A DNA stretch of 64,000 bases from Pseudarthrobacter sp. W1I19 (lineage in GTDB: Bacteria > Actinomycetota > Actinomycetes > Actinomycetales > Micrococcaceae), in NCBI RefSeq assembly GCF_030817835.1, contig NZ_JAUSZR010000001.1, positions 3,224,001-3,288,000 of the forward strand, given 5' to 3'. The notes below the pieces were generated by a model, which searched no databases, was not told where the DNA came from, and saw nothing but the letters and a program-made list of their open reading frames with translations. Below, piece after piece: positions 34,228-64,000 of this stretch (its first letter is position 1; each line of letters opens with the position of its first letter). A program made the position numbers and the translations under genes.

Positions 34228-37200
34228 AACAAGGCACCCGTCTCGGCCGGGTCTTCAGCGTTCCCGGTGTCCGACAGCGCTGCGACGGCCGGCCTCTCCC
34301 GTGCCGGCACTTCGGCGCGCAGTGGAGCAGAATCCGGACCGTCATCGTCATCCATGGACAGGGAGCCGATGCGGGAGTCCTGGAAGTCCCGGCAGGTGAT
34401 CACGGCCATGCCCCCGATGTAGTCCTCCAGCGTTTGCAGGAGTTTCAACGGGGTGGCGAGCACCATGTGGAAACCGAATTCGGTGAAGACGTCCATGGCG
34501 ATCCGGGTGAAGTTGCTGTCCGCCTTATCGAACGCCTCGTCCATGATGACAGTTCCGTAGCGCGGCACGTCCTCGTCATCGCCGGCCAGCTGGTAGCGCA
34601 GGGCCGCGGCCAGGCAAAACGTGACAAGCTTTTGCCGCTGACCGCCCGAGAGACCCGCGCTGGAATCGTATACATTGAGCTGCCTGCCAGCGAAGTCCAC
34701 CTCCGTGGCGGTGAAGCGCACGTGCAGTCGGGTGTCCAGGCATTGGTTCCGCCAGGAGGTATCGCCGGGTTCGCTCGAGGCGAGTCTCTCCATGAGGCGC
34801 CGCATGACTTCGAACTTGGCTTCGGCCTCGTCGCGGTTCTTGGCCACCCATGATCCCGTACTGATGTCCTGCAGGTCGCTAAGGAACTTCCTACCCAGCT
34901 CGCCCCGGTTCTCCTTGACGACGATCTTCAGGAACCGCCCGGCGTCGAAGGCAGACCGTTTAAGGGAGCCGTTGATGGGGGCCACCCTGTCGCGCACTTC
35001 CAAGGGCGCGCGGCGGATCTCATTGGCCAATGTGGCCACATTTTGCTGCGACTGGCGTTCCACGAGTTCGAAGAACCGGGTCTCAAAGTCCGGCAGGCGG
35101 TCCGCGACAAGCTGCTCCAACAGAGCAAGATATCCGCCAGCATCCTCCACCTGGTCGGTCAAGTCCCCGGCTTTGGCGGCCCAAAGACGCCGGAACTCTC
35201 CCGCCAGCGAGGCGAAGGCAGTTCGGGCGGCTGCGGCCTGTGACGTGGCCAGCTTTTCCTCCGCGCCCAACCCCGTGGCCACTGTCAGTGCGACTTCGTC
35301 GATCACCTCGTGGACGATGCTGCGGCGCTGCCCCAGGAACCGTTCCCGGAGAAGATTGCCAAGCTCCTCAGGCACCTCTGTTGCCCCGGCAACGCGAGGC
35401 TCAAGCCCCAAGACAATACGGTTTAATCCCGCTAGTTCGGTTTTCACTTCAGCCAGTGTCTCCATGGCGGCTTGCTGGGCCTTCTGCGCGGCCTCCCATC
35501 GTGCCCCCGCCTCCATCGCGGCAGCTTCCGCTGCTCGAAGGTCGCCGCTTGCCGCCAGGATCTCTTCCAGCCGTTCCTTGTGGCGCTCCACCCTGCTGCT
35601 GGCCCGGGCAGAATCCAGTTGGTCCCATTTGTGGGTTTCAGTCAGTGCCAGTGCCTCAGCGCGCAGGCGTTCGGTCTCACGGCGATTCTCCGCAGCGTCG
35701 ACTTCGGCGGCGAGTTGGTCAGCCTTGACGCGGGCGGCCTGGAGGAGCGAACTCAGGTGCTCCAGTTTGTCAACGTTGTCGAATCCAAGCACCCATGTAG
35801 AGCGATCATCCACTCGTGACCGATCGTCTTTTTCATGACGGGTGCGGGAACGTTTGACCTGCCCGGCATGGGTTACGGCTTTCTCCGAACCGCTTAGTTC
35901 CGCGGGTGCATCCACGCATTCGTAGTCATAGTTGACGGACAAGACCGAGTGCAGCCACCCGGCCATAGGACCGTCCGCCACTTGCACCCGCGAGACTAGG
36001 GACCGCTCGGTCCTTGCTGGCCGCGGCAGTTCCGCCCGGCTCGGGACGGATTCAAAGACAAGCCGCGTACCCAGAAATAGCCTGTCGACGGCGTCGCGCA
36101 CTCGGTCAATGTGCGTCTCCGGGACGAGCATGACGGTGGCCAGGGGGCGCAGCACCCGCTCGATGGCTCCGGTCCAGTCGGCGAACTCCTTCCGGACCTC
36201 CAACAGCTCACCAGCGAACGGAAACGCGGACGCCGGTAGGCCCGCCGCTTCGGCTACGACGGACCTCGCGCTGACGAGCCTGTCGCCAAGATTGGACCGT
36301 CGACCGCGAAGGGATTTGAGCTCCGTTTCGAGGTCACGGACTTTCGCTTTGGCGGCGGCGCGGGCCTCATGGAGCTCATTGATCGCCCGTCGGCTGGCCA
36401 CTTGGGCGTCATGGAAGGCGCTGCGTTCAGTGCGGGCCGCAGCCCGAAGTTCCTCATACTCTTCAAAGCTGGCGGGAAAGGTGATACCCACCGCCTCAAG
36501 CTTCGAGGCCAGCTCGGCCCGCCGCCCCAGAACAACGCGATTGCGTTCCTGTGCGAGGTCCAACTGACCCTGTTGGTCGCGCAGGGCCTGGCCGCCATGG
36601 TCGACCACCAGTCGCCGGGCGGCCGAGTGAGCCTGGTCCAATTCTGCTGTGGTGGAGGTCGTCATATCGACGTCGTACTGTGCGGTCAGCGCAGCGGACT
36701 CGGCCGCCGTTTTGGCGTCCATGGCCAGCTTGAGCTTCCATTCATCTTTGAAGCTTGGCAGCGCCACGGCAAGTGCGGCGGCCTCGGCCGCACGGGCACT
36801 GCTGAGCCTAAAGCTGCGGGCCGGTTCCTCCATACTCCGCAGGTGTTCCACCTGCTCGCGCGCCTCCACCACCAGCCGGTGGGCCTCGGACAATTCGCCA
36901 AACTGCGCCACTGCGGTAGTGGCGATGTCGAACGTCTTCGGCTTGTCCAGCATGAATTGGCGGAATAGGTCATCAAGGCTGCCCAGCGACTTGGCCGATT
37001 GCGTCTTGTGCAGCAGAAGGACGGCATTCTCGCCGGAGATGCCCATCAGGCGGCAGAAGCGGCTGGCAAAGGCCGAATGCTTGTCGGTGACGTATGCGGC
37101 CGGCCAAGTGCTCTTGATGCGCCGGGTCTCGATGCCGTTGCGAAGGTAGTCGACAAAATCGGTGAGCGTCGCATCCTCCTGAAGGAGGATACTCAATTCG

Positions 37201-37658
37201 CTGACTTCAGCGGGCGTGTTGGAGCCTCGGCGCAGGTGGTACAGCTTGAGCAACAGCACGGGCTTAGCCCCTGTGTTGTCGTTGTAGCGCAGCAGGATGC
37301 CGCTAAACGTGGCGCCGGTACGCAGATATTCCGCACGCACTTCGCCCGTTTCGTCATCGGCGCTGCGCCGCCACGCGCCGCGGATGTAGCTCACAATCGT
37401 CCGGTCTTCCCCCCGGGCGGAGGTGTCCTGGGCGGCCGCGTTGAAATGCAGCTTTCCGCGAGGCGTCAGCACGGCTGAGATGGCGTCGACCAGCGAGGAC
37501 TTTCCCGAGCCGGAATGTCCAGTTAGCAGGAAGCCCTTTCGTGCAATGTCCAGGCGGTGGTGGCCTTGAAACGTCCCCCAGTTGAGCAGCTCTACCCGTT
37601 CCAGCCGCCACTGACCGGTCCGGGTGCCTGGTGCCGTGGCCGCCATCGTCATGCTCAT
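34224..37658 (-). CDS. jetC: Wadjet anti-plasmid system protein JetC (SMC-like ATPase)
   Basis: A 1,144-residue SMC/MukB-like ATPase. Walker A is GHSGSGKS (47-54), the ABC signature is GLSGGQRQK (near 1002-1010), and Walker B is GTVIMDEAFDKAD (near 1035-1047, Asp1040/Glu1041). The middle 700 residues are two long coiled coils flanking a hinge-like region (about 480-640). The head ATPase drives DNA loop extrusion in this family, allowing small circles to be sensed. It overlaps jetB by 4 nt (ATGA) upstream and jetD downstream. All ATPase motifs are intact. The acidic, Pro/Ala-rich C-terminal tail of about 50 residues is probably disordered. Confidence 0.95.
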   Translation of the reverse strand: MSMTMAATAPGTRTGQWRLERVELLNWGTFQGHHRLDIARKGFLLTGHSGSGKSSLVDAISAVLTPRGKLHFNAAAQDTSARGEDRTIVSYIRGAWRRSADDETGEVRAEYLRTGATFSGILLRYNDNTGAKPVLLLKLYHLRRGSNTPAEVSELSILLQEDATLTDFVDYLRNGIETRRIKSTWPAAYVTDKHSAFASRFCRLMGISGENAVLLLHKTQSAKSLGSLDDLFRQFMLDKPKTFDIATTAVAQFGELSEAHRLVVEAREQVEHLRSMEEPARSFRLSSARAAEAAALAVALPSFKDEWKLKLAMDAKTAAESAALTAQYDVDMTTSTTAELDQAHSAARRLVVDHGGQALRDQQGQLDLAQERNRVVLGRRAELASKLEAVGITFPASFEEYEELRAAARTERSAFHDAQVASRRAINELHEARAAAKAKVRDLETELKSLRGRRSNLGDRLVSARSVVAEAAGLPASAFPFAGELLEVRKEFADWTGAIERVLRPLATVMLVPETHIDRVRDAVDRLFLGTRLVFESVPSRAELPRPARTERSLVSRVQVADGPMAGWLHSVLSVNYDYECVDAPAELSGSEKAVTHAGQVKRSRTRHEKDDRSRVDDRSTWVLGFDNVDKLEHLSSLLQAARVKADQLAAEVDAAENRRETERLRAEALALTETHKWDQLDSARASSRVERHKERLEEILAASGDLRAAEAAAMEAGARWEAAQKAQQAAMETLAEVKTELAGLNRIVLGLEPRVAGATEVPEELGNLLRERFLGQRRSIVHEVIDEVALTVATGLGAEEKLATSQAAAARTAFASLAGEFRRLWAAKAGDLTDQVEDAGGYLALLEQLVADRLPDFETRFFELVERQSQQNVATLANEIRRAPLEVRDRVAPINGSLKRSAFDAGRFLKIVVKENRGELGRKFLSDLQDISTGSWVAKNRDEAEAKFEVMRRLMERLASSEPGDTSWRNQCLDTRLHVRFTATEVDFAGRQLNVYDSSAGLSGGQRQKLVTFCLAAALRYQLAGDDEDVPRYGTVIMDEAFDKADSNFTRIAMDVFTEFGFHMVLATPLKLLQTLEDYIGGMAVITCRDFQDSRIGSLSMDDDDGPDSAPLRAEVPARERPAVAALSDTGNAEDPAETGALF

Positions 37659-38329
37659 TCTGTCTCCTCATCGGTGTCGGGCAGTTCTGCGGAGCCGGGC
37701 TCTACCTCCGCAGCCAGCCGCCGGTACTCCGCCTGCACGGCTGCAATCTCCTCCGCACCGAAGACGAGCCTCAAGACGGGCGAAACCTCGAAACGGCCCT
37801 CCGTGCTGGTTGCAGCCAACAGCCCGTATTTGACCATTTTTTGCCAGGACGAGTTGATGCGTTTGGAGAATCCCGCGACGTCGGCGTTGTCTTTCCCTCG
37901 GTAAACCTGCAGTTGATCGGCCACCTCATCCGCGCCAACGATGGTTTTCCGACCGCCGCTTTCCTGCAGTAGCGTCTGCCGCAGGTGGAGCAGCAGCGCT
38001 GTGTCCAGGAACGTCAATGTGGCAGTGCGCATCACCTTCGGCGCGTCAACGTCCGCAGAGGTGTTGCGGACGAAGGCGACCTGTGCGGCGTGATCGGTGA
38101 CTAGGTCCAGGAACAGGTCTGCCAAGCTGGACCGGACGGCGTCCTCGTCGGACAAGAGAGCCGTCCATAGATTGCCGTGCCGGGAGGCGGAGAGATAGGG
38201 GCCGCGTAGAAGCTGGACGAGGACCCGGCGGGAGGGCTCCCGCAGGGTGCCGGTGTCGCCCTCCCACAGCGCGACGTCGGACAACGGTCCCTCGGCTCCG
38301 GCCGGTCCGGGTACGCCTGATTCGCTCAC
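37655..38329 (-). CDS. jetB: Wadjet anti-plasmid system protein JetB (DUF4194, MukE-like)
   Basis: A 224-residue DUF4194 protein, the KITE/MukE-like subunit that bridges the kleisin JetA and the JetC heads. It has a winged-helix pattern: PSRRVLVQLLRGPYLSASRHGNLWTALLSDE (about 32-62), then RTATLTFLDTALLLHLRQTLLQESGG with the characteristic LRQ. It starts with GTG and overlaps jetA by 4 nt. Acidic N- and C-termini are usual. Function follows from the clear jetABCD order. Confidence 0.92.
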   Translation of the reverse strand: MSESGVPGPAGAEGPLSDVALWEGDTGTLREPSRRVLVQLLRGPYLSASRHGNLWTALLSDEDAVRSSLADLFLDLVTDHAAQVAFVRNTSADVDAPKVMRTATLTFLDTALLLHLRQTLLQESGGRKTIVGADEVADQLQVYRGKDNADVAGFSKRINSSWQKMVKYGLLAATSTEGRFEVSPVLRLVFGAEEIAAVQAEYRRLAAEVEPGSAELPDTDEETE

Positions 38330-39786
38330 GGGTGAATCCTTTCGGTGAAGAGATAGCGGCCCACAGTGCCGCGGCGCGTGGTGCCGGAGCCTCCGGGGGG
38401 CCGCCAGGTGACGTCTTCACGGCCGCTCAGCGCGATGGCGTGCTCTTCGGCTAGAACTAGGAGTCCGACGACGCTCGCCACACCTTGGGTGGCCGGACGA
38501 TCAGCCAAAACGTCAGCAATGGTTGCAGAGCTTTGACGGCTCAGCACGGTATTTATATTGCCGGTCAATTCGATCATGTCGATCTCGGAGGCGCGGGCCA
38601 GAGCCCGGAGTTCCTCAATGTCCACTGTCTCGGCGGCATGCTCCGTGATCTCGCCAGCGGCTTCGAAGTCGGCCGGATTGTGCAGATTAAGGGCGGCCAC
38701 TGAATTGAGCGGAACACTGGTCAGGTCCAGTGACAATTCCGTCTTAGCATAGGGCTTTACCGACTGCGAGGTCTCTAAAGCTTGCCGCAATGCAGAACGC
38801 AGCCGCTGGTTGATCAACCGGTCCTGTTCGAGTTCCTGGGACTGGACGAAGCGGCGCAGGCTGCGGCTGAACGCAGTCATGACGGCATGGATTTCGGAGC
38901 TACGGTCTTGGAGCGTGGGCAGAATCCGGCGCAGAGTCCTCACTTGCGTTGCGGAGAGCCGGGACGTGAATTGCCTGTCCATGATGGTGTCGATGCTGTC
39001 CTCGAAATCACGTCCCTGTTCCGGGTCAAGCAGTAGAGCATAGAAGCCGGAAAAGCTCCGTCCAGCCTCGGACTCCGCCAAGAGATCAACACCGCGGAAG
39101 ATGTCATCCAGGACGCTGCCGCGCGGGCCATCCTGTTCGATCAGCCGTTCCCGCAGGTCCCTGTTGAGTTGCTCAAGCTCGGACCGGACCCGGGCAAAAT
39201 CACTGGGTATTTCTTCGATGAGCGATAGTACGTCGCGCAGCCGTTCAGCGGCCTGCTCGGCGGACAGCACGTCAATGTCCCCGCCGGCGGCCCGCTCAAT
39301 CTGGCCATCGATGCGGGCGCGTTCCTCATGCAGTGCGCGCAGCCGTGACGTACTGTCCGGGTCTGTTTCGCGGGCCAGTACGCGCACCCTGTCCAGGATT
39401 GTGGCAAGACGCGATTCGGTGGCGGCCTGCCGCGGCTGGGACAGCTCCGCGACAAAGCGAATGGCCTGCAGAGCTCCCAGCGACAATTCAAAGGTCTCCT
39501 CGCGGGATCCCTCTGCAGTGCGACGGATCAGGACGCCGTCATTGCGCCACGCTGTGCAATAGGCCTGAGCCGTCTGCGGCAGATCGAACCCGTTGCCCCG
39601 CAGCTCCTCCAGATCCTCCTCAACGTGCTCAAAAAGCGCCGGCGCCGCCAACCGACGTTGCTCGCCGCCCAGATGCTTGCTCAGCACAGCTACTGCAATC
39701 GCTGCGTTATTTGCCCGGAGCAGACGCCACGCTGGATCCTCGCTCAACAAGCGAGAAGCCGTGAGTGCGGCGCGGAGAACAGTCAT
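38326..39786 (-). CDS. jetA: Wadjet anti-plasmid system protein JetA (DUF3375, kleisin-like)
   Basis: A 486-residue DUF3375 protein, the MukF/kleisin-like subunit. Recognisable pieces include LLSEDPAWRLLRANNAAIAVAVLSKHL at the N-terminus, YCTAWRNDGVLIRR (near 71-84), a long charged coiled coil (about 130-225) and SFSGFYALLLDPEQGRDFEDSIDTIM (near 245-270). It is the first gene of the operon; the 149-nt gap upstream should contain the promoter. The whole set is unbroken with 4-nt overlaps, so an active type I Wadjet system is expected. Confidence 0.93.
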   Translation of the reverse strand: MTVLRAALTASRLLSEDPAWRLLRANNAAIAVAVLSKHLGGEQRRLAAPALFEHVEEDLEELRGNGFDLPQTAQAYCTAWRNDGVLIRRTAEGSREETFELSLGALQAIRFVAELSQPRQAATESRLATILDRVRVLARETDPDSTSRLRALHEERARIDGQIERAAGGDIDVLSAEQAAERLRDVLSLIEEIPSDFARVRSELEQLNRDLRERLIEQDGPRGSVLDDIFRGVDLLAESEAGRSFSGFYALLLDPEQGRDFEDSIDTIMDRQFTSRLSATQVRTLRRILPTLQDRSSEIHAVMTAFSRSLRRFVQSQELEQDRLINQRLRSALRQALETSQSVKPYAKTELSLDLTSVPLNSVAALNLHNPADFEAAGEITEHAAETVDIEELRALARASEIDMIELTGNINTVLSRQSSATIADVLADRPATQGVASVVGLLVLAEEHAIALSGREDVTWRPPGGSGTTRRGTVGRYLFTERIHP

Positions 39787-42703: not shown

Positions 42704-42723
42704 AAAGAGGTCAGGGCCTCTTT
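42704..42723 (-). terminator. Hairpin at the end of the giant helicase gene
   Basis: AAAGAGG (42704-42710) and CCTCTTT (42717-42723) form a perfect 7-bp stem with a 6-nt loop, touching the stop codon of the giant helicase gene. Possible terminator. Confidence 0.4.
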
Positions 42724-45700
42724 TAGGATTGAAACGATGTGGCCAGCCGCACAGTGTCGCCGCGCAGTTCCAGGTGCCCAGTGTCCACTCCATGCTGCAG
42801 CCCCTCATTCAGGCGAGCCGTGATGCCAGCAGTGCGCCGCCTCCCGCCGAAGGTCTGGATCGTTTCCCGATGCAGCTCACTCACTCCGATGCCGCCTGTC
42901 GCACTCACGATATCCACCATCGCATTCCGTAGTTCCACAACGCTGATGTGCTCGGGCTTACGAACGATCTCAGCGTCATTAGACCGAAAGATCCTCCAAG
43001 TGCGCCGATCCACCGTGGCATCCCAAACAAATCCGTCTTCATCAATAACCTGTGTCGACGGTTCGACCAGACGAAGCACGGAGTCCGCACGAGGACCGTT
43101 GACCTTATTGAGGCCGAATGCAGCACACACCAGTCTTGCCAGGCGATCCTTGTGCACGGGCCCTTCAGCCGCGACCACAACACCGATGGCGTCACGGACG
43201 GCAGCAATGGAACGACGTGAATGCAGGCTGTCAAGGACGTCGGTGCTACCAAATCTCTGGACAGTCCACGGTTCGTAAACCCCTGCATCAACACGTTCTG
43301 TCGACAGCGAGGCAAAAGGTTTCCGGATCTCCTCGAAAAGTGGCAAGGTCCCCAAGATGTCCGTGAAGCTGCCGTCCGCATCAGCGGGATCAGATTCGTC
43401 AAGGATTCCCGGGCCGGCGATCACCCAGGTGTCCGGCTCTGCCGTCAGTTCGTCCGAAACCTCGTCTGCGGCTTCCCGCAAGGAAAGTTCCAGCCGGTCG
43501 AGGACAGCCTCGCTGTCCGAAAGCCAGGCCGGCAACCAGACGCGCTCCACCGAAGGCCACCGCATCATCCGCGTCAGGACATCCCTGGGCAACCCGTCCC
43601 GGTCGCCCGCGGTCCGGCGTGCAGCCCAGGCCGGACCGTCCAACAATATGGCCATCAGCTGGCGGGACGGGTCTTCCGCCAACGCAACGCTCAAATCCAC
43701 CTTGAAATCGGACAATCCCACATCCGAGACAACCACGAACCCGCGGTCCCGCAACGCGTCGGCTATCTCTTCCCGGTGCAGGTCAATACTGGCGGCGCGG
43801 CGCCCGTCATATGGCAGCGCAGCGGTCCCCTGCTCGGCCAGATCGAGGTATGACCGCAAATGCTTGATGCCAACAGAGCTGGTTTCCTCGGAGCGCAGAT
43901 CGGCCGGGTTGAAGCTGGAGAAGACAATAACTTGCCGGCGTGCACGGGTGACAGCAACGTTGAGGCGCCGTTCCCCGCCAGACCGGTTCAAGGGACCAAA
44001 GTTCAGCGGCAGGTATCCCTTGTCATTCTTGCTGAACCCCGTCGAGAACAGGATGACGTCCCGCTCATCACCCTGCACGTTCTCGAGGTTCTTGACGAAC
44101 AGCCCCTCTGAATCCTCGTCCAGGGCAGCGACGATACGCGGATCCTCGGTGTCGCGCAGCAGCCCTTCGATCAGTGCACGTTGCTGCAGGTTGAACGTCA
44201 CCACACCTACGGAGGGAGTCCCCGCCGGATCAGCATCAAACCTGCGGCGGATCTCGGCCACCACGGCAGCGGCCTCCACCGGGTTGGTACGAAGGAACTT
44301 GGACGGTCCCGAGCGGTGGAACTGGCCATCCACGCGGACAAAGTTCACGCCATGCCCCCGGACACCCGCATTCGCAGCGCCGTGGGACGGGCCCGGGAAC
44401 GAGGAAAGCTTGCTGTCGTAGTACTGCTGGTTGCTAAAAGCAATCAGCGATTCGTCCTGGCTCCGGTAGTGCCAGGACAACCACTGCCGCGGCACCCGCG
44501 CTTCCACGCACTCGGAAAGGATCGACTCCATATCCTCCACCACGGAGATCTCGGCGTCGCCGTCGCTGCCGGCGTCGGAGGAGATTTCCGCAAACGACGT
44601 GGGCGGCATCTGCTTGCTGTCACCCACCACCACTACGGACGCACCGCGGCCCATGGCACCCACCGCGTCAGCTACCCGGATCTGTGAAGCTTCATCGAAC
44701 ACCACGATGTCAAACAGACCGGCCCTGGCCGGGAAGAACCGCGCCACTGAATCCGGGCTGACCAGCGTGCAGGGCATGATCCCCGTGATGAGATCTGCAT
44801 AGTGTTCCATCAGTTTTCGGACGGACAAGCCACCTCGTTGCCTGGTCAGTTGCCGCTGCAGCTCGCCCATGCGCCCGGAGGTCGACGACGACGAGACCGT
44901 ACGGGAGCGCAGGACCCCGGCGGCGAGGTTGGTTTTGAGCAGCTGACGTACCGTTTCCGCTCGGCTGGTGAACCGCTCGATGGTGCGCTCGTGCAGGATG
45001 GTGTCAAAGTCGCTCAACCCCGTAGCGATGCGCCGTTCGGCCAGCGACCCTTCGGCCAAACCGCGCTCAAAAGCTGCTGCTGCGTCATCGGCCTCCAGCT
45101 CGCCGTCGAGGATGGCACTACGGGCGTCCACCAGCCCCGCAGCACGCAGCGGCTCGACATGACGGACCAGCTCGAGCCACCGCGTCAGCGGCACCGACCC
45201 CGCCGTATCCAGTCGCCGCGCCACGGACGTTTCCCACCAGCGGGCCAGGAAGCCCCGCCCACCGGTCCACTTACGCAGGTCAGCAGCAACCACACCCTTG
45301 ATCTGCAGGAATTCTTCCCAGGCCTGCGAAAGCTCCCGCAGCCAGCCGACAACGTTCTGGTGGACGTCCGGGGCGTCCCTCAGGAACGTACGGAGCTCGC
45401 TCTGGAAGCTCACGACGTCAGGCTCCGGGGACGGCTGCACCGCCTGCGCGGCCCAGCGAAGCCAGGAAATGCGGTGCTGCAAGTCGGCTTGTGCGTCCGG
45501 CGTCAGCGGGTTCCATTGCTGATCCGCAGGAAGCCCAGGCAAAGAGCCCCGCGTCGCCCGCAGGCCGGAGACCTCGTGCTGAACGGCCACCAGTTTCTCC
45601 AGCAGCGGCACCAGCTCCTTGTGACGGACTTCAGCTCGAGAAACAAGCACGGGAGACAGTTCGGCGGCCACTGCCAACAGCCGCTTCTTGCGTCCCCAGA

Positions 45701-48700
45701 ACCCGGAAGCGGCGGCCTGCTGCGCGCGACCGAGGATTTCCGGCAGAGGAAGATCCATAGCCTCCGGCGCCACCTGCTCGAGGCCCGGATGTTGGACGGA
45801 TGCAAAGGCCGTCACCAGTTTCTCCAACTGTTCAGCGTTAACTGACCAGTCGCCGGAGCGGACCACATCCAGGGTCCCCAACGGAACGTTCCGGTCCTGC
45901 AACAGCGTAGCGAGAGTCTCGACGTCGGCCGGCGTCTGTGCTGCGTCCAGAACCGATGGCAGTCCGGGGGTTGGCCGCAAGGCGTTCAGCGCCTCGTTGA
46001 GGCGACGTCCCAGAGTCAGCAGCTGCTGTTCCTGCTGCTCGCCAACGGCAACAGTGGCGAACCGCCATGGGTGGTCAGGCCCCGGACGGACGGGGTCGGT
46101 GAACTCCGGAAGTTCCCGGAGCACCTGCCGGATCGAGTTCAGGGTGGAGTCATTCAAGGACGCTGTCAGTTCAGGGCTGAGCGGAACTGTTGCATGATCA
46201 GGTTCATAGGTCAGAGCCTTGGTCCGCGCGCTGTAGAGGGAAAGCTGCGCACCATTCTCTTCGTGGACGTTGTTGGCATAGCGGACCAGTCCACGCCGGG
46301 CTGCGGCAAGATCGGTGGAGGCAGTCTCAAGCTGCTGCTTATTTGCAGACAGGCTCAGCTCCAGGGCGTGTTTGATCTGCGCCCTGACCACCGCCGGCTT
46401 GCTGCCCTTGTCGTGCAGGTCAAGGGAGAACGGCCCCATCCCGACGTCGTCGAGCCGCCTCTGGACAACATCGAGTGCTGCCCGCTTCTCCGCAACGAAC
46501 AGAACCCGCTTGCCGTCAGCAATGGCGCGGGTCAGGAGGTTGGTGATGGTCTGTGACTTTCCGGTGCCCGGAGGGCCTTCCAGGACAAACGTCTGGCCGG
46601 CGACGGCAGACGCGACTGCCTCCAGCTGCGACGAGTCCGCTGGTATTGGACACTGCGCGGCAAGGGCGTCCAGGTCGACGTCGGACGTGACGGGAACGCC
46701 GTCAGAATAGAGCTCCGTCGGGGTGCTGATCAGGTGGTTGACCAGGCTGTTGGCCGTGAATTCCTTCCAGTTCTCGTCAAGGTCCTTCCACAGCCGGAAC
46801 TTGGCGAACTGCAACATGGACAGGTCCACGGTGTTTTCCACCCGGAAGGCAAGGCCCTTGGCCGAAACGGCCGCCCGGACTGCAGCGAACGCCGCGTCCA
46901 GATCGATTCCAGATCCGTCTTCGTCCGGCTCTGCGAGACCCGGGATGCGCAGGTCATGGGACTGCGCCAGCTTCTCAAGTAGACAATAGTTCGGCGTGGA
47001 CTGGCGCGTCTCATCAAGTGTGACCCGGTACAGACCGTTTTTCCCTGCAGAAGTCAGTTTGACGGGGACCAGAACCAGCGGGGACCGAAGCGCCCGGCCG
47101 TCCAGCTCCCACATCAGGCTGCCGATGGCCAGGTAGAGGTTGTTGGCTCCGGTTTCCTCCAACTGGGTCTTCGCCTTGTAGGCGAGCCCGCGCATCCTGG
47201 CGTTGTAGCCGTCTTCGCTGACCTCGGCGAACACGGACTTTTTGGAGCTGAGCAGCTCCGCGAGTTCGTCTTGCGGAAGGTCCCTGCCGAAGCGGACGCC
47301 GCGCTCCTGGTGGATGGCGCTGATCTGGTTGGACGGAAGCAGGCTGACGGACGTGCCCTTGCTGATGAGGTCCTCGAAGGCGCCCATCCATGCAGTAGGC
47401 ACTGCGAGTGGAAACCGGGCGGTGTCAGTGAAGTTGATGAGCCTGTTCCGCAGGCTCAGGTCCAGCAGGGCGTTCTTCCACTGGAGCACCCTGGGTGGAA
47501 CATCAGTTGTGGTCCTGGCCGGTCCCCCGCTTGAGGCTGCTTTCTTCGGCAGCGCCGGCGCAGTCTTGGTTTCCGGGACATAGTTGACCACGGTGTAGGT
47601 TCCGGCGTCGGACGTGGTCCGGGCCGGCAGCGGGTAGATGCCATCGAGGCGGGCGCGCCTGATGTCAGTCACCGCGTTGATCTCGTCATTGCCGCTCTCC
47701 ACATAACGGTTCAGCGGGCTGTTGCGGAGTGCACCCGCCGAGATCGGCTGACTGCCGGTGAGGAGCGTGGTTTCCACGAGGCCGATGAAGCCCCGCTGTA
47801 CGAGGCTGACCAGCTCGGGCACGTCGTCGGAGGCCGCAGTGCTGAGGCTGCCTTCCTCGCGCCAGTAGCCGAGGAAGGCGTGGCCGTCCACTAGCCAGAG
47901 CAGAGGCCTGATGCCGCAGAATTCCAGGGCGGCGGCCAGGACCAGCGTGGTGTCGAGGCACGTGCCAAGACGGTCGTCAAGGACCTGCGCCGGCGTGCGT
48001 ACCTGCTGGCCTTCAAGGCCCCAGCTGGCGGGTGGCATGCTGTAGCGGATGTCGCGGGCGCTCATGGCCTGGGCGATGGCGAACACGATCTGGTCAACCC
48101 GGTCCCCGTCCTCCAGGTACCCGTCGAAGCTGCCGCTGCCGCTTGTTTGCATGAGGATGTCGGCGGCCTCGGACATGAGCTTGGCAATGCTGGGATGGTG
48201 CGGTTGCACGTACGCGGCCAGGAACTCGTAGGAGACGAGTCCCCGTCCAGCGATCCACAACTGTGCGGGCAGGAGCGTCAGGTCTGTCTCTGCGCGGCCC
48301 AGCTCGGCGACGGCGGCATTGGCGCCGGCCGAGTGGACGGTCACCAGCACCTTTCCCATCTGGCGGTCAGCCAGTTCATACATGGTGGCAGCCTGAACCG
48401 GGACGTTGAGGTCATCGAGCGTGATGGTTTGGCCTGCGGCAAGATCCACATACTGCTGGAAGTCGCCGGAGATCCGGCCTGACTGCGCGGAGGCCTCCAC
48501 CTGGACCACTGCACCACGGATTTCCGCCCCCATGTTGGTGATCTTGACCTGCCTGACGAACCGGAAGCCGTTGTGCGCCATCGCATAGCTCAGGGCATCT
48601 GCTGTGGTCACCTCAACCACAACGTGGGCAGCGGATGCAGCCGGTCCAGGGACCGAGGGCTCACCCGGAAGGCTTTCCTCCGGGTGGTCGGACTGCGCGA

Positions 48701-49181
48701 CGGCGGCCGGCAGAGCCTGCTGGTCTTCTTCCGGTTGTTCCCGGTTCGGAGAGGACCGGTTCTGGTACTCGGTAAGAAGCGCAACCAACTTGCTGTGAGT
48801 TTGGTCCAGCCCGATCACTTTGACCAGCCGGCCTGCGGTGTCCAGGGCACGGAAGGTATCGGCGTCGTCGAAGGTCTCATTGTGGGCCCACCGGTTCCGT
48901 GCCTGGCGCAGCTCGGAGGTATGGCTGCGTGCGTCATGCGGAAGGTTGAAGGGGTAGCCAAGTGAGCCCATGGATTCAGTCATGATGCGCAGCTGCAGGC
49001 TGAGATCCGTGGCTGCGTAGGATTGCGCAGCGCGGCCTGCGTTCTCATCCTTGTGCTGAATGATCTTGGTCCATGCCACGCCGGGGGCTACCTCGGAGAG
49101 CACTGCTGCGATGTAGGGCTCAAGGCCAACCGCCAAGGCCTCAAGGGCCCGGCCCACATACTCGCGGTTGGACAGACTCAT
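42723..49181 (-). CDS. Giant defence-type protein: Swt1/HEPN, transglutaminase-like, DUF4011, SF1 helicase, Vsr-like nuclease, DUF3320
   Basis: A 2,152-residue single-gene system. Residues about 1-140 are a Swt1-like HEPN domain with the R-x4-H motif in ARNRWAHN (His near 100). A beta-rich segment follows (about 190-310), then a transglutaminase-like fold with Cys near 408 (RLGTCLDTT) and His near 434 (VDGHAFLGYW). DUF4011 begins near 565 (WKNALLDLSLRNRLINF). The helicase has Walker A GPPGTGKSQT (near 869), VFDEASQ (near 1494), GDSKQMPP (near 1520), WHYRSQDESL, NVQGDERDVI (near 1701) and VAVTRARR (near 1742). A Vsr/MTES-type nuclease region (about 1800-1900) and DUF3320 (about 1960-2060) follow. 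ATG 49181 has GGGGGA upstream. DUF4011-helicase-Vsr proteins are known antiphage candidates (hhe). Confidence 0.88.
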   Translation of the reverse strand: MSLSNREYVGRALEALAVGLEPYIAAVLSEVAPGVAWTKIIQHKDENAGRAAQSYAATDLSLQLRIMTESMGSLGYPFNLPHDARSHTSELRQARNRWAHNETFDDADTFRALDTAGRLVKVIGLDQTHSKLVALLTEYQNRSSPNREQPEEDQQALPAAVAQSDHPEESLPGEPSVPGPAASAAHVVVEVTTADALSYAMAHNGFRFVRQVKITNMGAEIRGAVVQVEASAQSGRISGDFQQYVDLAAGQTITLDDLNVPVQAATMYELADRQMGKVLVTVHSAGANAAVAELGRAETDLTLLPAQLWIAGRGLVSYEFLAAYVQPHHPSIAKLMSEAADILMQTSGSGSFDGYLEDGDRVDQIVFAIAQAMSARDIRYSMPPASWGLEGQQVRTPAQVLDDRLGTCLDTTLVLAAALEFCGIRPLLWLVDGHAFLGYWREEGSLSTAASDDVPELVSLVQRGFIGLVETTLLTGSQPISAGALRNSPLNRYVESGNDEINAVTDIRRARLDGIYPLPARTTSDAGTYTVVNYVPETKTAPALPKKAASSGGPARTTTDVPPRVLQWKNALLDLSLRNRLINFTDTARFPLAVPTAWMGAFEDLISKGTSVSLLPSNQISAIHQERGVRFGRDLPQDELAELLSSKKSVFAEVSEDGYNARMRGLAYKAKTQLEETGANNLYLAIGSLMWELDGRALRSPLVLVPVKLTSAGKNGLYRVTLDETRQSTPNYCLLEKLAQSHDLRIPGLAEPDEDGSGIDLDAAFAAVRAAVSAKGLAFRVENTVDLSMLQFAKFRLWKDLDENWKEFTANSLVNHLISTPTELYSDGVPVTSDVDLDALAAQCPIPADSSQLEAVASAVAGQTFVLEGPPGTGKSQTITNLLTRAIADGKRVLFVAEKRAALDVVQRRLDDVGMGPFSLDLHDKGSKPAVVRAQIKHALELSLSANKQQLETASTDLAAARRGLVRYANNVHEENGAQLSLYSARTKALTYEPDHATVPLSPELTASLNDSTLNSIRQVLRELPEFTDPVRPGPDHPWRFATVAVGEQQEQQLLTLGRRLNEALNALRPTPGLPSVLDAAQTPADVETLATLLQDRNVPLGTLDVVRSGDWSVNAEQLEKLVTAFASVQHPGLEQVAPEAMDLPLPEILGRAQQAAASGFWGRKKRLLAVAAELSPVLVSRAEVRHKELVPLLEKLVAVQHEVSGLRATRGSLPGLPADQQWNPLTPDAQADLQHRISWLRWAAQAVQPSPEPDVVSFQSELRTFLRDAPDVHQNVVGWLRELSQAWEEFLQIKGVVAADLRKWTGGRGFLARWWETSVARRLDTAGSVPLTRWLELVRHVEPLRAAGLVDARSAILDGELEADDAAAAFERGLAEGSLAERRIATGLSDFDTILHERTIERFTSRAETVRQLLKTNLAAGVLRSRTVSSSSTSGRMGELQRQLTRQRGGLSVRKLMEHYADLITGIMPCTLVSPDSVARFFPARAGLFDIVVFDEASQIRVADAVGAMGRGASVVVVGDSKQMPPTSFAEISSDAGSDGDAEISVVEDMESILSECVEARVPRQWLSWHYRSQDESLIAFSNQQYYDSKLSSFPGPSHGAANAGVRGHGVNFVRVDGQFHRSGPSKFLRTNPVEAAAVVAEIRRRFDADPAGTPSVGVVTFNLQQRALIEGLLRDTEDPRIVAALDEDSEGLFVKNLENVQGDERDVILFSTGFSKNDKGYLPLNFGPLNRSGGERRLNVAVTRARRQVIVFSSFNPADLRSEETSSVGIKHLRSYLDLAEQGTAALPYDGRRAASIDLHREEIADALRDRGFVVVSDVGLSDFKVDLSVALAEDPSRQLMAILLDGPAWAARRTAGDRDGLPRDVLTRMMRWPSVERVWLPAWLSDSEAVLDRLELSLREAADEVSDELTAEPDTWVIAGPGILDESDPADADGSFTDILGTLPLFEEIRKPFASLSTERVDAGVYEPWTVQRFGSTDVLDSLHSRRSIAAVRDAIGVVVAAEGPVHKDRLARLVCAAFGLNKVNGPRADSVLRLVEPSTQVIDEDGFVWDATVDRRTWRIFRSNDAEIVRKPEHISVVELRNAMVDIVSATGGIGVSELHRETIQTFGGRRRTAGITARLNEGLQHGVDTGHLELRGDTVRLATSFQS

Positions 49182-49470: not shown

Positions 49471-50160
49471 TTACCGTGCGATCCGCCCTTGGAGTTCTTC
49501 GTCGATCCTGCGATTGCGCGCGCTGATGAAAGCGTTGCTGAGCCGTAGATACTCGAGGTATTCGTCACGGTCTTTCGGAACAGCCGGTGTGCTGAAGTCG
49601 GCGAACGGGTGGAAGAACCGGATTGTCTGGCCGTCATCCTCGACGAGGTCTTCGAGTAAGAAGAATTCGACGTAACCGACGAAATCCCCGAACAGTGCGA
49701 AGAAGTCCGCATACCTGAGCAGGACCTCTCCGAGGGGGCTCGGCTCACCGAAATAGTGGCGGCGGATGCACTCGAGAGTCAGATCGAAGCGATCGGCGAT
49801 CCTCGGGTGGAGCCCGCGTGCACCATTGATAGTCGGTTTTCTGCCGATCCTGTTGCCTGGAAACACGAGCGTGCTTCCGGGGGTGTAGCCGCGGTACTTG
49901 GGTAGGCCGTCTTCCGGTATGTCACGGATGACGTTCCAAGCCTTCTTTCGCAGCCTGGTGGTGATCGTGTCGCTGGCCAGGAAGAAAACACCGGACGAGG
50001 ATCGGTGCACGAGGTACCTGCGGGGTTCCATAGCCAGGTGGAAGTGCTGGCCGGTGGGCAACTCCTTGCTCCACAGCAGTTGGTGGTACTTCCGCAAGGC
50101 GGGGCTGAAGGAGTCAGGGTCTTTGCCGGCCGGAGTATCGGAGTGGAAGTCGAAGGTCAT
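49471..50160 (-). CDS. DUF6994-like protein of unknown function
   Basis: A 229-residue soluble protein. It resembles the DUF6994 family by its overall pattern: MTFDFHSDTPAGKDPDSFSP and LRKYHQLLWSKELPTG at the N-terminus, ISDTI/LASDTITTRL near 62, YTPGSTLVFPGNRI (near 92-105) and NGARGLHPRIADRFDLTLECIRRHY (near 112-136). No catalytic motif is evident and function is unknown. It stands alone and ends before a strong terminator. The family name is from memory and should be checked. Confidence 0.65.
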   Translation of the reverse strand: MTFDFHSDTPAGKDPDSFSPALRKYHQLLWSKELPTGQHFHLAMEPRRYLVHRSSSGVFFLASDTITTRLRKKAWNVIRDIPEDGLPKYRGYTPGSTLVFPGNRIGRKPTINGARGLHPRIADRFDLTLECIRRHYFGEPSPLGEVLLRYADFFALFGDFVGYVEFFLLEDLVEDDGQTIRFFHPFADFSTPAVPKDRDEYLEYLRLSNAFISARNRRIDEELQGRIAR

Positions 50161-54555: not shown

Positions 54556-56658
54556 CTATTCAGGACTCATCCTCCCGGTCGCGGGTATCAAACTCTCCGC
54601 CGCAACCGCTGCTGCACCCGCCCTATCGGCGAACCGCTCCGAGAGCGTCTTGACAGCTGTCGCTTCCGGCAGCGCAGCGGAAAACTTTAAGTTGTCGACC
54701 ATCTCCACAGGAATATGCGGCACTATGTCGTCAAACGAGATCTGCGCGAGCCGCGACAGGTCCACCGCCCCGCGCAGTACCATGACGTCGTTGTACGACT
54801 GTCCCTCCGCTCCTCCAAGGCCGGCACGTAGCGTCTCGTTCGCCTTGAGTCCCGCCCAAGTCCAGAAATGGACGTCTTGACCCGACTGTTCAACCACGAG
54901 CTCGCCTTTTGAGACCTGATCTGCCCGTGCCTCGCGGACGAGGTCCAGCCGCTCGGTCGCTCGCCGTGACAACGGCACTTCTGGAGTCTCGCCAAGAACC
55001 ACATCGCGTTGCGCTCGCATCATCTGAAATGACAGCGCCATCGCGTCGCTATGCCACCGGACGTCGCCCTTGTAGGTCGACGGACTGACAACGACTTCGA
55101 ACCGTTCCCAGTTCACGTGCTCGACACGCCAAGCCCGCCCATTCATGAGGATGGGCTTGGCGTCGAGCTTCTCGGAGCCTTCTCGTGGCAACGCGAGTGG
55201 TGAAATGAAGCCAAGTTCCTTGTTCCCGCTGACGACACGCAATTCTTTCTCAGCGTTGAATGAGCTGAGCAGGTCCATAAAGTGTCGGCGGCCGAACGCC
55301 TTCTCGGCGGCCGGCCCGATCATCAACAGTCCGCCGTCCTCTACGAGCAAGTCTTCGTCGCACAAGTACTTAAGTACTTCTTCGCCGTCGTCCATCAGTT
55401 CCAGGGTTCCCCACCATTCCCGCCAGGTGTTGGCTCCGTAGGCACCTTCCTGCAGCGCAAGCGCAAGCAGCTGCTGCGCGGTGAGGTGCCGCGGGTGTGG
55501 TGGTGGCGTGATGGGCTCAACAAAGCCGCGCTTCCACAGCAGCAGAAGCCCTGCGGCCTCGAGGAACGCGTCTGGGCTGGTGGCCAGGAACAATGTGTTT
55601 CGCGTCGACCCGGGGCGCCGTCCCGTTCGCCCCAACCTCTGGAGGAACGATGCGACGGTTCTGGGCGCATCGATCTGGACGACGCGGTCGAGGTCTCCTA
55701 TGTCAATGCCCAGCTCGAGGGTTGAGGTAGCGACAATGACGGTATTCTGAGCTTCGGCGAACGCCTGCTCGGATCTGCGCCTCTCCTCCGCGGAGAGAGA
55801 TGAGTGGGACACAAACGTCGCCACGCCAAGCGTACGGAGCTCGAAAGCAAGCTGCTCGCTGACGCGGCGTGATTCGCAGAAAACGAGCCGCTTCTCCCCC
55901 CGATGAAGTGCCGCAATGATCTTCGCTGCGTTAGCCACCGAGCCGACGTAGTCCAGCAGCACTTCGGGCTCTGGTGCAGATGCCGGGGTTTCCTCGAAGA
56001 CCACGCGTAGCTCCTGCTTCCCTGGTCCGGCAGCGGTCTCTCCTCCTTGTAACCAACGTCCGATTTCCTGTGGATTGCCAACTGTGGCCGACAAACCGAC
56101 CCTCTGGATCGGACGCCCAGCTATCCGTTCCAAACGAGCGAGAACTCCAAGCAGGTGCCATCCACGATCAGAGGCCGCGAATGAGTGCAGCTCGTCAACA
56201 ACGATGGCCTGCAGTCCGGTAAATAGTCTGTCGTGGTCGACCCTCCGCGACACGAGCATCGCTTCGAGCGACTCTGGCGTGGTTAGAAGGATATCCGGCG
56301 GATCAGCAAGGATGCGCTTCCGTGCGGTGTCGCCGACGTCGCCGTGCCAGAGCCCGACTCGTCGGCCGAGCCAGTCGCCGTATTTGGTAATACGTGGGTG
56401 GAGGTTGTTGAGCAGCGCTCGGAGCGGGGTCACGTAGAGGACGGACAGCCCGCTCCATTGCCTTTGCACCATGGAGGAGAGCAAGGGGAAGACAGCCGCC
56501 TCAGTCTTGCCTCCGGCCGTGGGTGCGATGAGCACGCAGTCACCGCCCGAGCGGATGGGCTCGACTGAGGCCGCCTGAAGAGGGCGCAGGCTGGACCATC
56601 CCAGAGAGTTGACGACATGGTATTCAATAGCCTCGTCCAGGCCCGAATCGCCTGCCAT
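54556..56658 (-). CDS. brxHI: BREX type 2 helicase BrxHI (Lhr-like DEAD/DEAH box)
   Basis: A 700-residue superfamily 2 helicase of the Lhr kind. The Q-region and Walker A are PLQAASVEPIRSGGDCVLIAPTAGGKTE (Lys51). Motif Ia is VTPLRALLNN, motif II is VVDELHSF (DELH 155-158), motif III is GLSATV, and motifs V and VI are VATSTLELGIDIGDLDRVVQ and FLQRLGRTGRR. The last 300 residues include a winged-helix and beta region. It is the last gene of the locus, 3 nt after brxD. In type 2 BREX this helicase accompanies PglW/X/Y/Z and BrxD in stopping phage DNA replication. All motifs are intact. Confidence 0.88.
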   Translation of the reverse strand: MAGDSGLDEAIEYHVVNSLGWSSLRPLQAASVEPIRSGGDCVLIAPTAGGKTEAAVFPLLSSMVQRQWSGLSVLYVTPLRALLNNLHPRITKYGDWLGRRVGLWHGDVGDTARKRILADPPDILLTTPESLEAMLVSRRVDHDRLFTGLQAIVVDELHSFAASDRGWHLLGVLARLERIAGRPIQRVGLSATVGNPQEIGRWLQGGETAAGPGKQELRVVFEETPASAPEPEVLLDYVGSVANAAKIIAALHRGEKRLVFCESRRVSEQLAFELRTLGVATFVSHSSLSAEERRRSEQAFAEAQNTVIVATSTLELGIDIGDLDRVVQIDAPRTVASFLQRLGRTGRRPGSTRNTLFLATSPDAFLEAAGLLLLWKRGFVEPITPPPHPRHLTAQQLLALALQEGAYGANTWREWWGTLELMDDGEEVLKYLCDEDLLVEDGGLLMIGPAAEKAFGRRHFMDLLSSFNAEKELRVVSGNKELGFISPLALPREGSEKLDAKPILMNGRAWRVEHVNWERFEVVVSPSTYKGDVRWHSDAMALSFQMMRAQRDVVLGETPEVPLSRRATERLDLVREARADQVSKGELVVEQSGQDVHFWTWAGLKANETLRAGLGGAEGQSYNDVMVLRGAVDLSRLAQISFDDIVPHIPVEMVDNLKFSAALPEATAVKTLSERFADRAGAAAVAAESLIPATGRMSPE

Positions 56659-56661
56659 TGG

Positions 56662-57999
56662 CTAGAAACCTATGTCGACGTCGTCGACCGAAGACGCGGC
56701 GCGCAGGTCACCGCGTGTCTGGGCTTCCCGCTCGACGTCAGTAAGTTCGGAGACGCTAAGAGTGAGCTCGTAATGTTTGCGCGGGTCAAATTCCGGGAAC
56801 TGATCGACGCGATCGAGTACATCTGCAACCAGCTTCTTGAGGAACACACGAGGAGCCACCCCCGTCCGGCCGCCCAGCTCCCCTGCTACCGCACCTGCAA
56901 GGTCAGCGACGTAAGCATCGTCAACAACAGCGTGAATGCGGTCGAACGTCGCGGTCCCCACTGCGTAAATGTCACGAACCCGGCTGCCGAGCTCTACTAG
57001 AGATTCCGGTGTGAACCCTTGCAGTCGGATCTGTGCTGCTCGCGGGTTGTCGAATCGCGCGTCGGTTGCGAAGTCCGTCTGCAGCCGCTGGGCGAGTGGA
57101 GCCAGCCGCTGGACTCCCTGTTGCCCGTCGTAGAACGCGGGCGTGCCCGTCATAAGGAGGTACAGGCCCGGGTAGCGTCCACTGTCAACTTCGTCCATGA
57201 GCTGGCGCAACGCGTTGAGCGACTTCTCGCGCACATCGGACCGCATCCTTTGCAGTGTCTCGACTTCATCCAGGACGAGAACGAGCCCGGCGTAGTCCGA
57301 GTCGCGCAGTACCGTCAGGAGCCCTTGAAGGAATCCGAGGGCGCCAAAATGGTCGAGCTCGCCTCGCACTCCAGCGGAACGGCGGGCACTGGCAGACACA
57401 TGGGGCTGACCACCAAGCCAGGCCAAAAGGGCATCCGCCTCGGCGTTTTCCGCGGCAGCACTCATCTGGCGGTAAGCACGCAGCGCCATGGCGAACGCGG
57501 GCGCTTCCTTCGACACCGATGCAAGGCGCTTTTCTAGCAACTCGTCAGTTCGACTCTCGAGGTCAGCGGCGTCAGCGGGGCCGGCTCCTTGAGCATCCTG
57601 CCCGAGCACGTACAGCCAACCATCAACGACATCGCCGAAAGCTCCGCTGGCGACAGTCGGCGTCGAAAGGTTTTCGACGACACGCCGGTACACCTTTTCC
57701 AGCTTGTACAGCGGCGTCTCGGTCTCTGAAATTTGAATCTCGGCAGTAGCGAAGTTCATCTTCTTCGCGCGCTCGGTGAGCCAACGGGAGAAGAACGTCT
57801 TACCGGAGCCGTATTCACCGCGCACCGCCTTAAACTGCGCTGCACCCTGCTTGACTGAACTCAGCTCTTCGTCAATTGCCGCCTTGAAGCTGCCGAGTCC
57901 TACGGCCATGACCTCAAGACCCTGTTGGGGCACGGTTCCGCGGCGCAAAGCGTCTATGATTTCACGACGACGTCGAGGACTGATCGCCACATCCGTCAT
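56662..57999 (-). CDS. brxD: BREX system ATP-binding protein BrxD
   Basis: A 445-residue AAA-type ATPase of the BrxD/DUF2791 kind. N-terminal RRREIIDALRRGTVPQQGLEVMAVGL is a family hallmark. Walker A is GEYGSGKT (61-68), Walker B is LVLVLDEVETLQRM (near 239-252), and LMTGTPAFYDGQQGVQRLAPLAQRL follows. BrxD is typical of type 2 (and some other) BREX loci. It overlaps pglZ by 4 nt upstream (ATGA) and is followed by brxHI after 3 nt, so all are translated from one message. Confidence 0.9.
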   Translation of the reverse strand: MTDVAISPRRRREIIDALRRGTVPQQGLEVMAVGLGSFKAAIDEELSSVKQGAAQFKAVRGEYGSGKTFFSRWLTERAKKMNFATAEIQISETETPLYKLEKVYRRVVENLSTPTVASGAFGDVVDGWLYVLGQDAQGAGPADAADLESRTDELLEKRLASVSKEAPAFAMALRAYRQMSAAAENAEADALLAWLGGQPHVSASARRSAGVRGELDHFGALGFLQGLLTVLRDSDYAGLVLVLDEVETLQRMRSDVREKSLNALRQLMDEVDSGRYPGLYLLMTGTPAFYDGQQGVQRLAPLAQRLQTDFATDARFDNPRAAQIRLQGFTPESLVELGSRVRDIYAVGTATFDRIHAVVDDAYVADLAGAVAGELGGRTGVAPRVFLKKLVADVLDRVDQFPEFDPRKHYELTLSVSELTDVEREAQTRGDLRAASSVDDVDIGF

Positions 58000-63600: not shown

Positions 63601-64000
63601 GCTGCCGCGCGACGAACGAGATCATCGGGATCGCCATCTGCCCCGAACCGGTTTCGACAAGCTTGGCTACCTTGGAGGTCTCGTTTTGGATGAAAGCCGA
63701 GTCGCGCAGGTGGTTGGCGAGCCACAGCACCAGTTCATCAAGAAACAGCACTAAGCCGTCATAGCCGAGCCCTTTGGCATGCTCCGTCATGATCCGGAGC
63801 CCCTGATCGATCGGAAGCCAGGCCGAGGTGGAGGTGTAGGCCTCGAAATAAGTCTCTACCAACGTGGCGGCCACCGCCTGCCGGTCCCGTTCGCTTGCGG
63901 TGCCAGCGGCCGCCGCGTCCAGCTCCGCCGCCGTCAGCCCTCCCCCGCTCAGGGTCCCCAGCACCGGGTCGAGGTCAGAGGCAAACTTCGAGAAGAACAG
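60680..64000 (-). CDS. pglY: BREX type 2 P-loop ATPase PglY, 5' end outside the window
   Basis: The frame is open from the right edge of the window to the stop at 60680 (over 1,105 residues), so the start and probably the Walker A region are missing. Visible are [38 protein letters not shown], a Walker B-like segment, then [13 protein letters not shown], and [31 protein letters not shown]. These are typical of the large BREX ATPase (BrxC/PglY). The last 120 residues are a dense Glu/Arg/Gln coiled coil. It is the most upstream BREX gene here; pglX and pglW are expected beyond the edge. Overlaps pglZ by 4 nt. Confidence 0.88.

What the first reader, a model, noticed from the sequence alone, without database searches (positions are those of the whole stretch)
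42723..49181. Composite HEPN-transglutaminase-helicase-Vsr protein of 2,152 residues
The core DUF4011-SF1-Vsr-DUF3320 matches the hhe-like architecture, but it is fused to an N-terminal Swt1-type HEPN domain (R-x4-H present) and a transglutaminase-like domain with Cys and His in place. One polypeptide would combine possible RNase, peptidase or cross-linking, helicase and DNase activities, which suggests a multi-step response with built-in activation by proteolysis.
Basis: partly seen in the sequence, partly recalled or inferred. Interest (0 to 1): 0.7.

Follow-up and report, generated by a model that had tools for sequence, protein, structure and literature searches.

The report
Giant multi-enzyme antiphage protein ProA
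This is one very large bacterial defence protein that carries an RNA-cutting, a protease-like, a DNA-motor and a DNA-cutting part; the design was already described in 2013 and has a family name, but comparing relatives shows that the RNA-cutting part is an optional add-on that is often missing and in a few relatives is joined or replaced by another DNA-trimming enzyme.

Summary
In detail: one minus-strand gene (42723-49181, 2,152 aa) encodes Swt1-type HEPN, disordered linker, Ig-like domain, transglutaminase-like (TGase) domain, DUF4011-SF1 helicase, Vsr-like MTES_1575 nuclease and winged helices. The architecture is not new: PMC3710099 (2013) describes it and proposes suicidal RNase plus protein cleavage; NCBIfam names the family ProA (1729 bits, cut-off 1500). 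It is not Hhe (608 bits, cut-off 2000). Activation by proteolysis is possible, unproven. The gene lies between Wadjet and BREX genes.

The parts
42723..49181 (-). ProA gene, 2,152 aa
   Evidence: NCBIfam NF058533 1729 bits over cut-off 1500, residues 198-2115; PADLOC PDC-S37 935 bits, residues 561-2145
48756..49169 (-). Swt1-type HEPN domain, residues 5-142, motif R95-N-x3-H100
   Evidence: Pfam HEPN_Swt1 82.1 bits, cut-off 27.5; all-helical in the model; in 30 rows chosen by the motif itself E90, R92, D45, D59, G49 are also invariant
48624..48755 (-). Disordered linker, residues 143-186
   Evidence: pLDDT under 50 for 145-182; length 38-87 in 35 HEPN-live rows
48270..48623 (-). Ig-like beta-sandwich, residues 187-304
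47586..48239 (-). Transglutaminase-like domain, residues 315-532; candidate triad Cys408, His434, Glu470
   Evidence: Cys at N-cap of helix 408-421, His at start of strand 434-440, Glu just after strand 466-469; Cys in 87, His in 91, acidic residue in 96 of 96 rows; Foldseek top hit 3kd4 E 1.7e-4; A4 profile meets 3kd4 alone, E 0.38, where 3kd4 has Pro in the Cys column and keeps the His; DUF553 in 36 and Transglut_core in 25 of 47 rows, best E 0.0013 and 0.0038
46968..47468 (-). DUF4011, residues 572-738
   Evidence: 111.6 bits, cut-off 22.2
43917..46637 (-). SF1 helicase, residues 849-1755; Walker A GPPGTGKS (Lys875), FDE at 1495-1497
   Evidence: AAA_11 67.1 and AAA_12 69.9 bits, cut-offs 27; Walker A G/K/S and FDE in 87 of 87 rows; nearest solved structure by sequence SMUBP-2 4b3f E 4.1e-13
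43440..43805 (-). Vsr-like REase (MTES_1575 type), residues 1793-1914; Asp1829, Asp1848
42729..43244 (-). Two C-terminal winged-helix-like domains (the first overlaps DUF3320), about residues 1980-2055 and 2080-2151
49471..50160 (-). DUF6994 gene upstream, unknown role
   Evidence: Pfam 285 bits; also upstream of ProA in 7 of 16 other own-genus loci (L002, L005, L006, L011, L012, L013, L026), some of them the same genome twice and some with short flanks

Best explanation
A ProA-family antiphage protein that probably works alone. Shown by sequence or model: a core of Ig-like domain, TGase-like domain, DUF4011-SF1 helicase, Vsr-like nuclease and winged helices, with an accessory Swt1-type HEPN tied on by a disordered linker. 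Inferred: the winged helices and helicase engage invading DNA, ATP-driven movement brings the nuclease to it and the DNA is cut; the TGase-like domain is a protease or transamidase that regulates the machine or attacks a phage or host protein; when DNA cutting fails, the HEPN domain cleaves RNA and stops the cell. In this member the motifs of HEPN, TGase, helicase and nuclease all look intact.
For: NF058533 over its cut-off; PDC-S37 935 bits. Walker A, FDE and Asp1848 in 87 of 87 rows, Asp1829 in 84 with 3 Glu, against Cys408 in 87 and His434 in 91 of 96 and a live HEPN in 35 of 96: the helicase-nuclease pair is the part never lost in rows that hold it. HEPN-less relatives pass the ProA cut-off (L023 1771.5 bits). 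HEPN live in 7 of 38 family-model loci of 1200 bits or more (one is the window itself), decayed in 5, absent or undetected in 26; at least 7 changes of HEPN state on a quick tree of 87 rows. No methyltransferase among the window ORFs that I scanned, all right of 27916. ProA lies 3 kb from Wadjet JetA and 5 kb from BREX BrxHI.
Against: No activity was measured. The paper behind the name ProA was not found, so I cannot say what was tested in the reference protein or whether it carried HEPN; the ProA model begins at residue 198, after the HEPN. That DNA is the target, and the order of steps, is inference from domain types. Some relatives do have restriction-modification genes close by (type I R subunit in L051, methylase and endonuclease in L156), so independence of modification is not general.
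Confidence: 0.5

Rival explanations
1. Proteolytic release: on infection the TGase-like domain cuts the linker and frees the HEPN RNase.
For: HEPN is joined by a disordered linker, with the Ig-like domain between it and the TGase. All 35 HEPN-live rows keep Cys408 and His434; 9 of 61 rows without a live HEPN lost one or both (Fisher p 0.024). In one Arthrobacter protein (L010 and L028) the frame breaks near the linker and HEPN is a separate 203-aa frame.
Against: 52 of 61 rows without a live HEPN still keep Cys and His. In tree-aware independent pairs HEPN goes the same way in about 1 of 6 pairs, never the other way, median p 1. No motif seen in the linker. The split protein has a second break in the helicase part, so it may be decaying.
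Confidence: 0.2
2. The TGase-like domain is a second effector that cleaves or cross-links phage or host proteins, independent of HEPN (the idea of PMC3710099).
For: The TGase stays intact in most members without a live HEPN (52 of 61) and its key columns are nearly invariant.
Against: No substrate known; support for the fold is modest. Cys or His was lost in 9 of 96 rows that keep the helicase-nuclease core, so it is not indispensable everywhere.
Confidence: 0.3
3. HEPN is a nucleic-acid-sensing or regulatory module rather than an RNase.
For: PMC3710099 infers a binding role for the HEPN of eukaryotic Swt1, which lost the motif; HEPN matches without the motif persist here in 7 of 96 rows.
Against: The R-N-x3-H motif is intact in the window; PMC3710099 lists MTES_1575 as active by motif.
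Confidence: 0.1
4. A broken or silent gene.
For: Related copies are broken: G054 and G053 are spread over several frames.
Against: The window copy is open throughout, has a ribosome-binding-like sequence and its motifs, and 7 of 61 own-genus genomes (the window's included) hold a full-length match.
Confidence: 0.04

Closest known systems
ProA (NCBIfam NF058533) / PADLOC PDC-S37
   Same: Over the curated cut-off (1729 against 1500 bits) over the whole model, from the Ig-like domain to the C-terminal winged helices
   Different: The model does not include the N-terminal HEPN that this member carries
HEPN-transglutaminase-SF1 helicase-Vsr-wHTH giants MTES_1575 (Microbacterium testaceum) and gi 380301041 (Brachybacterium squillarum), PMC3710099
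   Same: Same set of domains, HEPN N-terminal and wHTH C-terminal (passages read)
   Different: I did not fetch those two sequences; an Ig-like domain before the TGase is seen here in the model and is not mentioned in the passages read
Hhe (NF042953)
   Same: DUF4011-type anti-phage protein; local similarity over residues 1281-1907, 608 bits
   Different: Far under its cut-off of 2000 bits
PDC-S48, DEDDh exonuclease-TerB-like-BRCT
   Same: This kind of protein is fused to ProA in L057, L063, L064 and L125 and lies near it in others
   Different: Absent from the window's genome at E 1e-40

Membership tests
ProA (NF058533) | Score over the curated cut-off of 1500 bits | tested here: met
   1729 bits, model positions 1-1903
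ProA (NF058533) | Protection against phage | not testable with these tools
   Needs an experiment; the paper behind the name was not found
Hhe (NF042953) | Score over the curated cut-off of 2000 bits | tested here: not met
   608.5 bits
HEPN, Swt1 type (PF18731) | Profile score over cut-off and R-x4-H motif | tested here: met
   82.1 bits, cut-off 27.5; R95-NRWA-H100
HEPN, Swt1 type (PF18731) | RNase activity | not testable with these tools
   -
Transglutaminase-like superfamily | Profile score over a Pfam cut-off | tested here: not met
   No hit for this protein at E 10; relatives hit DUF553 and Transglut_core only weakly, best E 0.0013 and 0.0038. I therefore write transglutaminase-like as a description, not as confirmed membership
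Transglutaminase-like superfamily | Cys-His-acid on helix N-cap, strand, strand (recalled) | tested here: met
   Cys408, His434, Glu470 positions in the model, conserved; distances in the model were not measured
Transglutaminase-like superfamily | Fold match to a solved member | tested here: inconclusive
   3kd4 Foldseek E 1.7e-4 but TM under 0.2 over the whole model; the VIA rows mainly covered the Ig-like domain
REase MTES_1575, Vsr-like fold | Profile score and fold | tested here: met
SF1 helicase | AAA_11/AAA_12 with Walker A and B | tested here: met

The most novel reading that the evidence does not exclude
ProA is a chassis with exchangeable warheads. The helicase-nuclease core with its TGase senses DNA and can carry an RNase (HEPN), a DEDDh exonuclease-BRCT unit (PDC-S48), or both in one chain of about 2,660 residues, and the TGase-like enzyme is what licenses or restrains the toxic N-terminal parts. 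This predicts that HEPN is toxic or idle without an intact Cys408, and that two PADLOC candidates (PDC-S37 and PDC-S48) act as one system where they are fused.
Probability: 0.2. Interest if true: 0.65.

Novelty: new member of a known kind. Interest (0 to 1): 0.33.

Why it matters
The architecture itself adds little to a 2013 description. The relatives are more useful: they show which parts are never lost (helicase, nuclease), which are nearly always kept (TGase) and which are attachments (HEPN, exonuclease), and they supply natural comparisons, such as HEPN-less, HEPN-decayed and TGase-dead versions, with which the role of a transglutaminase-like domain in antiphage defence could be tested directly.

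Tried and rejected
Protein database search could not be made: the shared database was switched off; I used the search for related loci and the genome search instead.

Name ProA: four paper searches (listings and starts of abstracts seen) gave no paper that describes it; searched for the architecture and the PADLOC names. PMC3710099 was the only listed paper in which I found the architecture (passages); PMC10250203 and PMC4012209 were seen in passages, which hold nothing on it. Other listed papers were not opened.

An early regular expression misread L079 as TGase-dead; the alignment shows its Cys intact, and my notebook entry 2 repeats that mistake. A trans-acting HEPN gene beside HEPN-less ProA: of 37 frames hit by my HEPN profile in loci L001-L073 only the split copies L010 and L028 were outside a main ProA frame; the profile is built from ProA HEPNs, so other HEPN types would be missed. 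A conserved companion gene: the widest neighbour family spans 7 loci. PDC-S48 as an obligate partner: rejected. In the 396 genomes of the order (taken to be the same set, counted by hand) its profile matches at E 1e-40 in 10 of 35 genomes with a ProA-like match and 79 of 361 without; many of those cover the exonuclease part alone. Matches over nearly the whole profile: 3 of 35 against 28 of 361. It sits beside other defence-type genes elsewhere (16 stretches looked at). L113 as a fused exonuclease: Pfam finds nothing, so it is left open. L058's neighbour has the exonuclease domain but no BRCT hit. HEPN profile against the PDB: nothing useful, best E 0.18. Plasmids: 23 records, only short pieces of the query.

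Sampling limits: one search used patterns that include a HEPN peptide, so its HEPN share is inflated; 7 of 38 from the family model is fairer, but holds the window itself, near-identical genomes and some cut or split frames. L114 has a divergent R-N-R-L-A-H HEPN that my profile missed and is counted as none. In some searches six of 69 rows were dropped (five as duplicates, one partial); rows under 800 residues or without readable Cys and His columns were dropped, leaving 96, of which 87 of 1700 residues or more went into the tree. The trees are quick ones with several long branches that meet.
Full report
WHAT IS THERE. The gene lies on the minus strand, 42723-49181, ATG at 49181 with GGGGGA five bases before it; 2,152 residues. 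Pfam finds HEPN_Swt1, DUF4011, AAA_11, AAA_12, MTES_1575 REase and DUF3320 over their cut-offs. AlphaFold2 models of residues 1-560 (47-row alignment, pLDDT 85.1, pTM 0.63) and 1780-2152 (40 rows, pLDDT 83.3, pTM 0.55) give: helical HEPN 5-142, disordered linker 145-182, Ig-like sandwich 187-304, alpha/beta TGase-like domain 315-532, nuclease domain about 1793-1914, a second disordered stretch, and two winged-helix-like domains. Relative placement of domains is not reliable at these pTM values. Residues 561-1779 were not modelled.

IS THE TRANSGLUTAMINASE REAL? This protein alone has no Pfam hit at E 10. Of 47 rows scanned (the window's included), 36 hit DUF553 (transglutaminase-like) and 25 hit Transglut_core, best E 0.0013 and 0.0038. 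Foldseek's first PDB match of the N-terminal model is 3kd4, a putative protease, E 1.7e-4, with a low TM over the whole model. A 51-row profile of the domain meets the same 3kd4 alone, E 0.38, in the stretch that holds Cys408 and His434; 3kd4 has Pro in the Cys column and keeps the His, and Pro is also what replaces the Cys in L029, L058 and L127. Cys408 caps a helix, His434 begins the next strand but one element and Glu470 follows the strand 466-469, the usual order in this superfamily (recalled). Of 96 rows Cys is kept in 87, His in 91, an acidic residue at 470 in 96. I take the fold as likely and the activity as open.

FAMILY. NCBIfam NF058533, anti-phage protein ProA: 1729 bits, cut-off 1500, residues 198-2115. 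PADLOC PDC-S37: 935 bits. Hhe: 608 bits against 2000, so the Hhe-like label is true only as kinship. ProA over cut-off occurs in 18 of 396 genomes of the order, 11 of 394 of the class and 7 of 396 of the phylum (the samples overlap and hold the window's genome). In the own genus 7 of 61 genomes, the window's included, hold a full-length match and 2 more hold it in several frames. Named close relatives are Pseudarthrobacter and Arthrobacter.

ALREADY IN PRINT. PMC3710099 (2013; [quoted passage not shown] That covers the finding's architecture and most of its interpretation; activation by proteolysis is the finding's own addition. In relatives seen here restriction-modification genes can lie near ProA (type I R subunit in L051; methylase and endonuclease in L156).

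THE DNA ENGINE IS THE PART NEVER LOST. In 87 rows Walker A (G869, P870, G872, G874, K875, S876), FDE at 1495-1497 and Asp1848 are invariant and Asp1829 is Asp in 84 and Glu in 3. TGase and HEPN vary.

HEPN IS AN ATTACHMENT. Among 38 loci found with the ProA model at 1200 bits or more, 7 carry a live HEPN (the window is one), 5 a decayed one and 26 none detected (L114, with a divergent motif, is counted as none). In the larger but biased set of 96 rows: 35 live, 7 decayed, 54 none. On a quick tree of 87 rows built without the N-terminal part HEPN status changes at least 7 times (5 times on 63 rows). Remnants without the motif (for example L027 and L066) point to loss in place; the tree itself cannot tell gain from loss. 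HEPN-less members pass the ProA cut-off (L023, 1771.5 bits).

DOES HEPN NEED THE TGASE? All 35 HEPN-live rows keep Cys408 and His434. Of the 61 others 52 keep both and 9 lost one or both (L110, L081, L119, L029, L058, L127, L046 and the second copies in L041 and L070). Fisher p 0.024 ignores kinship; in independent pairs on the tree the two traits go the same way in about 1 of 6 pairs and never the other way, which is not significant. The linker varies from 38 to 87 residues in 35 rows with no motif that I could see. So dependence of HEPN on TGase is allowed, not shown, and TGase seems to have work to do without HEPN.

A FURTHER WARHEAD IN RELATIVES. In Curtobacterium L057, L063 and L064 one open frame runs DEDDh exonuclease, TerB-like, BRCT, then HEPN and the ProA core (about 2,660 aa in L057; ProA 1635.3 bits there; RNase_T 90.1 and TerB 25.1 bits over their cut-offs, BRCT just under). 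Among the 63 loci a separate gene of this kind lies 47 to 6,001 bases from the ProA frame in L022, L031, L040, L051, L052 and L060; L058 has an exonuclease without a BRCT hit 99 bases away. In G006 of the own genus it precedes ProA on the same strand. PADLOC calls the L031 protein PDC-S48 (491.7 bits). Against a tight partnership: ProA-like carriers hold a profile match no more clearly (10 of 35) than others (79 of 361), nor a near-full-length one (3 of 35 against 28 of 361), and elsewhere it sits beside other defence-type genes. The window's genome has none at E 1e-40.

SURROUNDINGS. Downstream lies Wadjet JetA, JetB, JetC, JetD (33094-39786), upstream BREX-type BrxHI, BrxD, PglZ and BrxC (54556-63964). 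DUF6994 (49471-50160) precedes ProA here and in 7 of 16 other own-genus loci. The window left of 27916 was not scanned for families.

VERDICT. A well-formed member of a known, named family whose architecture was published in 2013. The multi-enzyme reading is sound as a hypothesis; the order of steps, the TGase substrate and proteolytic activation remain untested.

Noticed in passing
window 33094-39786: Wadjet-type JetA, JetB, JetC and JetD genes on the minus strand.
   Followed up: partly
window 54556-63964: BREX-type genes BrxHI, BrxD, PglZ, BrxC on the minus strand; no other BREX gene was looked for.
   Followed up: partly
L057:6609-14606, L063, L064, L125: DEDDh exonuclease-TerB-like-BRCT unit (PDC-S48 kind) fused in front of ProA; in Curtobacterium together with HEPN.
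   Followed up: partly
L041:7931-21405 and L070:7931-21401: Two ProA genes in tandem in Paeniglutamicibacter; the second has lost the HEPN motif and TGase Cys and His but keeps the nuclease aspartates.
   Followed up: partly
L010 and L028: One Arthrobacter ProA is spread over three frames, with breaks near the HEPN linker and inside the helicase part.
   Followed up: no
window 49471-50160: DUF6994 gene upstream of ProA here and in 7 of 16 other own-genus loci; in L004/L156 the gene upstream is the exonuclease instead.
   Followed up: partly
L063:14603-16588 and relatives in L064, L041, L070, L052, L057, L017: A 640-840 aa protein family without Pfam hit (tested on L063) recurs near ProA; weak PADLOC HEC-07 and NsnC hits.
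   Followed up: no
L034, L036, L037, L038, L043, L049, L053, L061: Cryobacterium and Glaciihabitans ProA frames end 9-19 residues after the position of residue 1905, just past the nuclease domain, so they lack the C-terminal winged helices.
   Followed up: no
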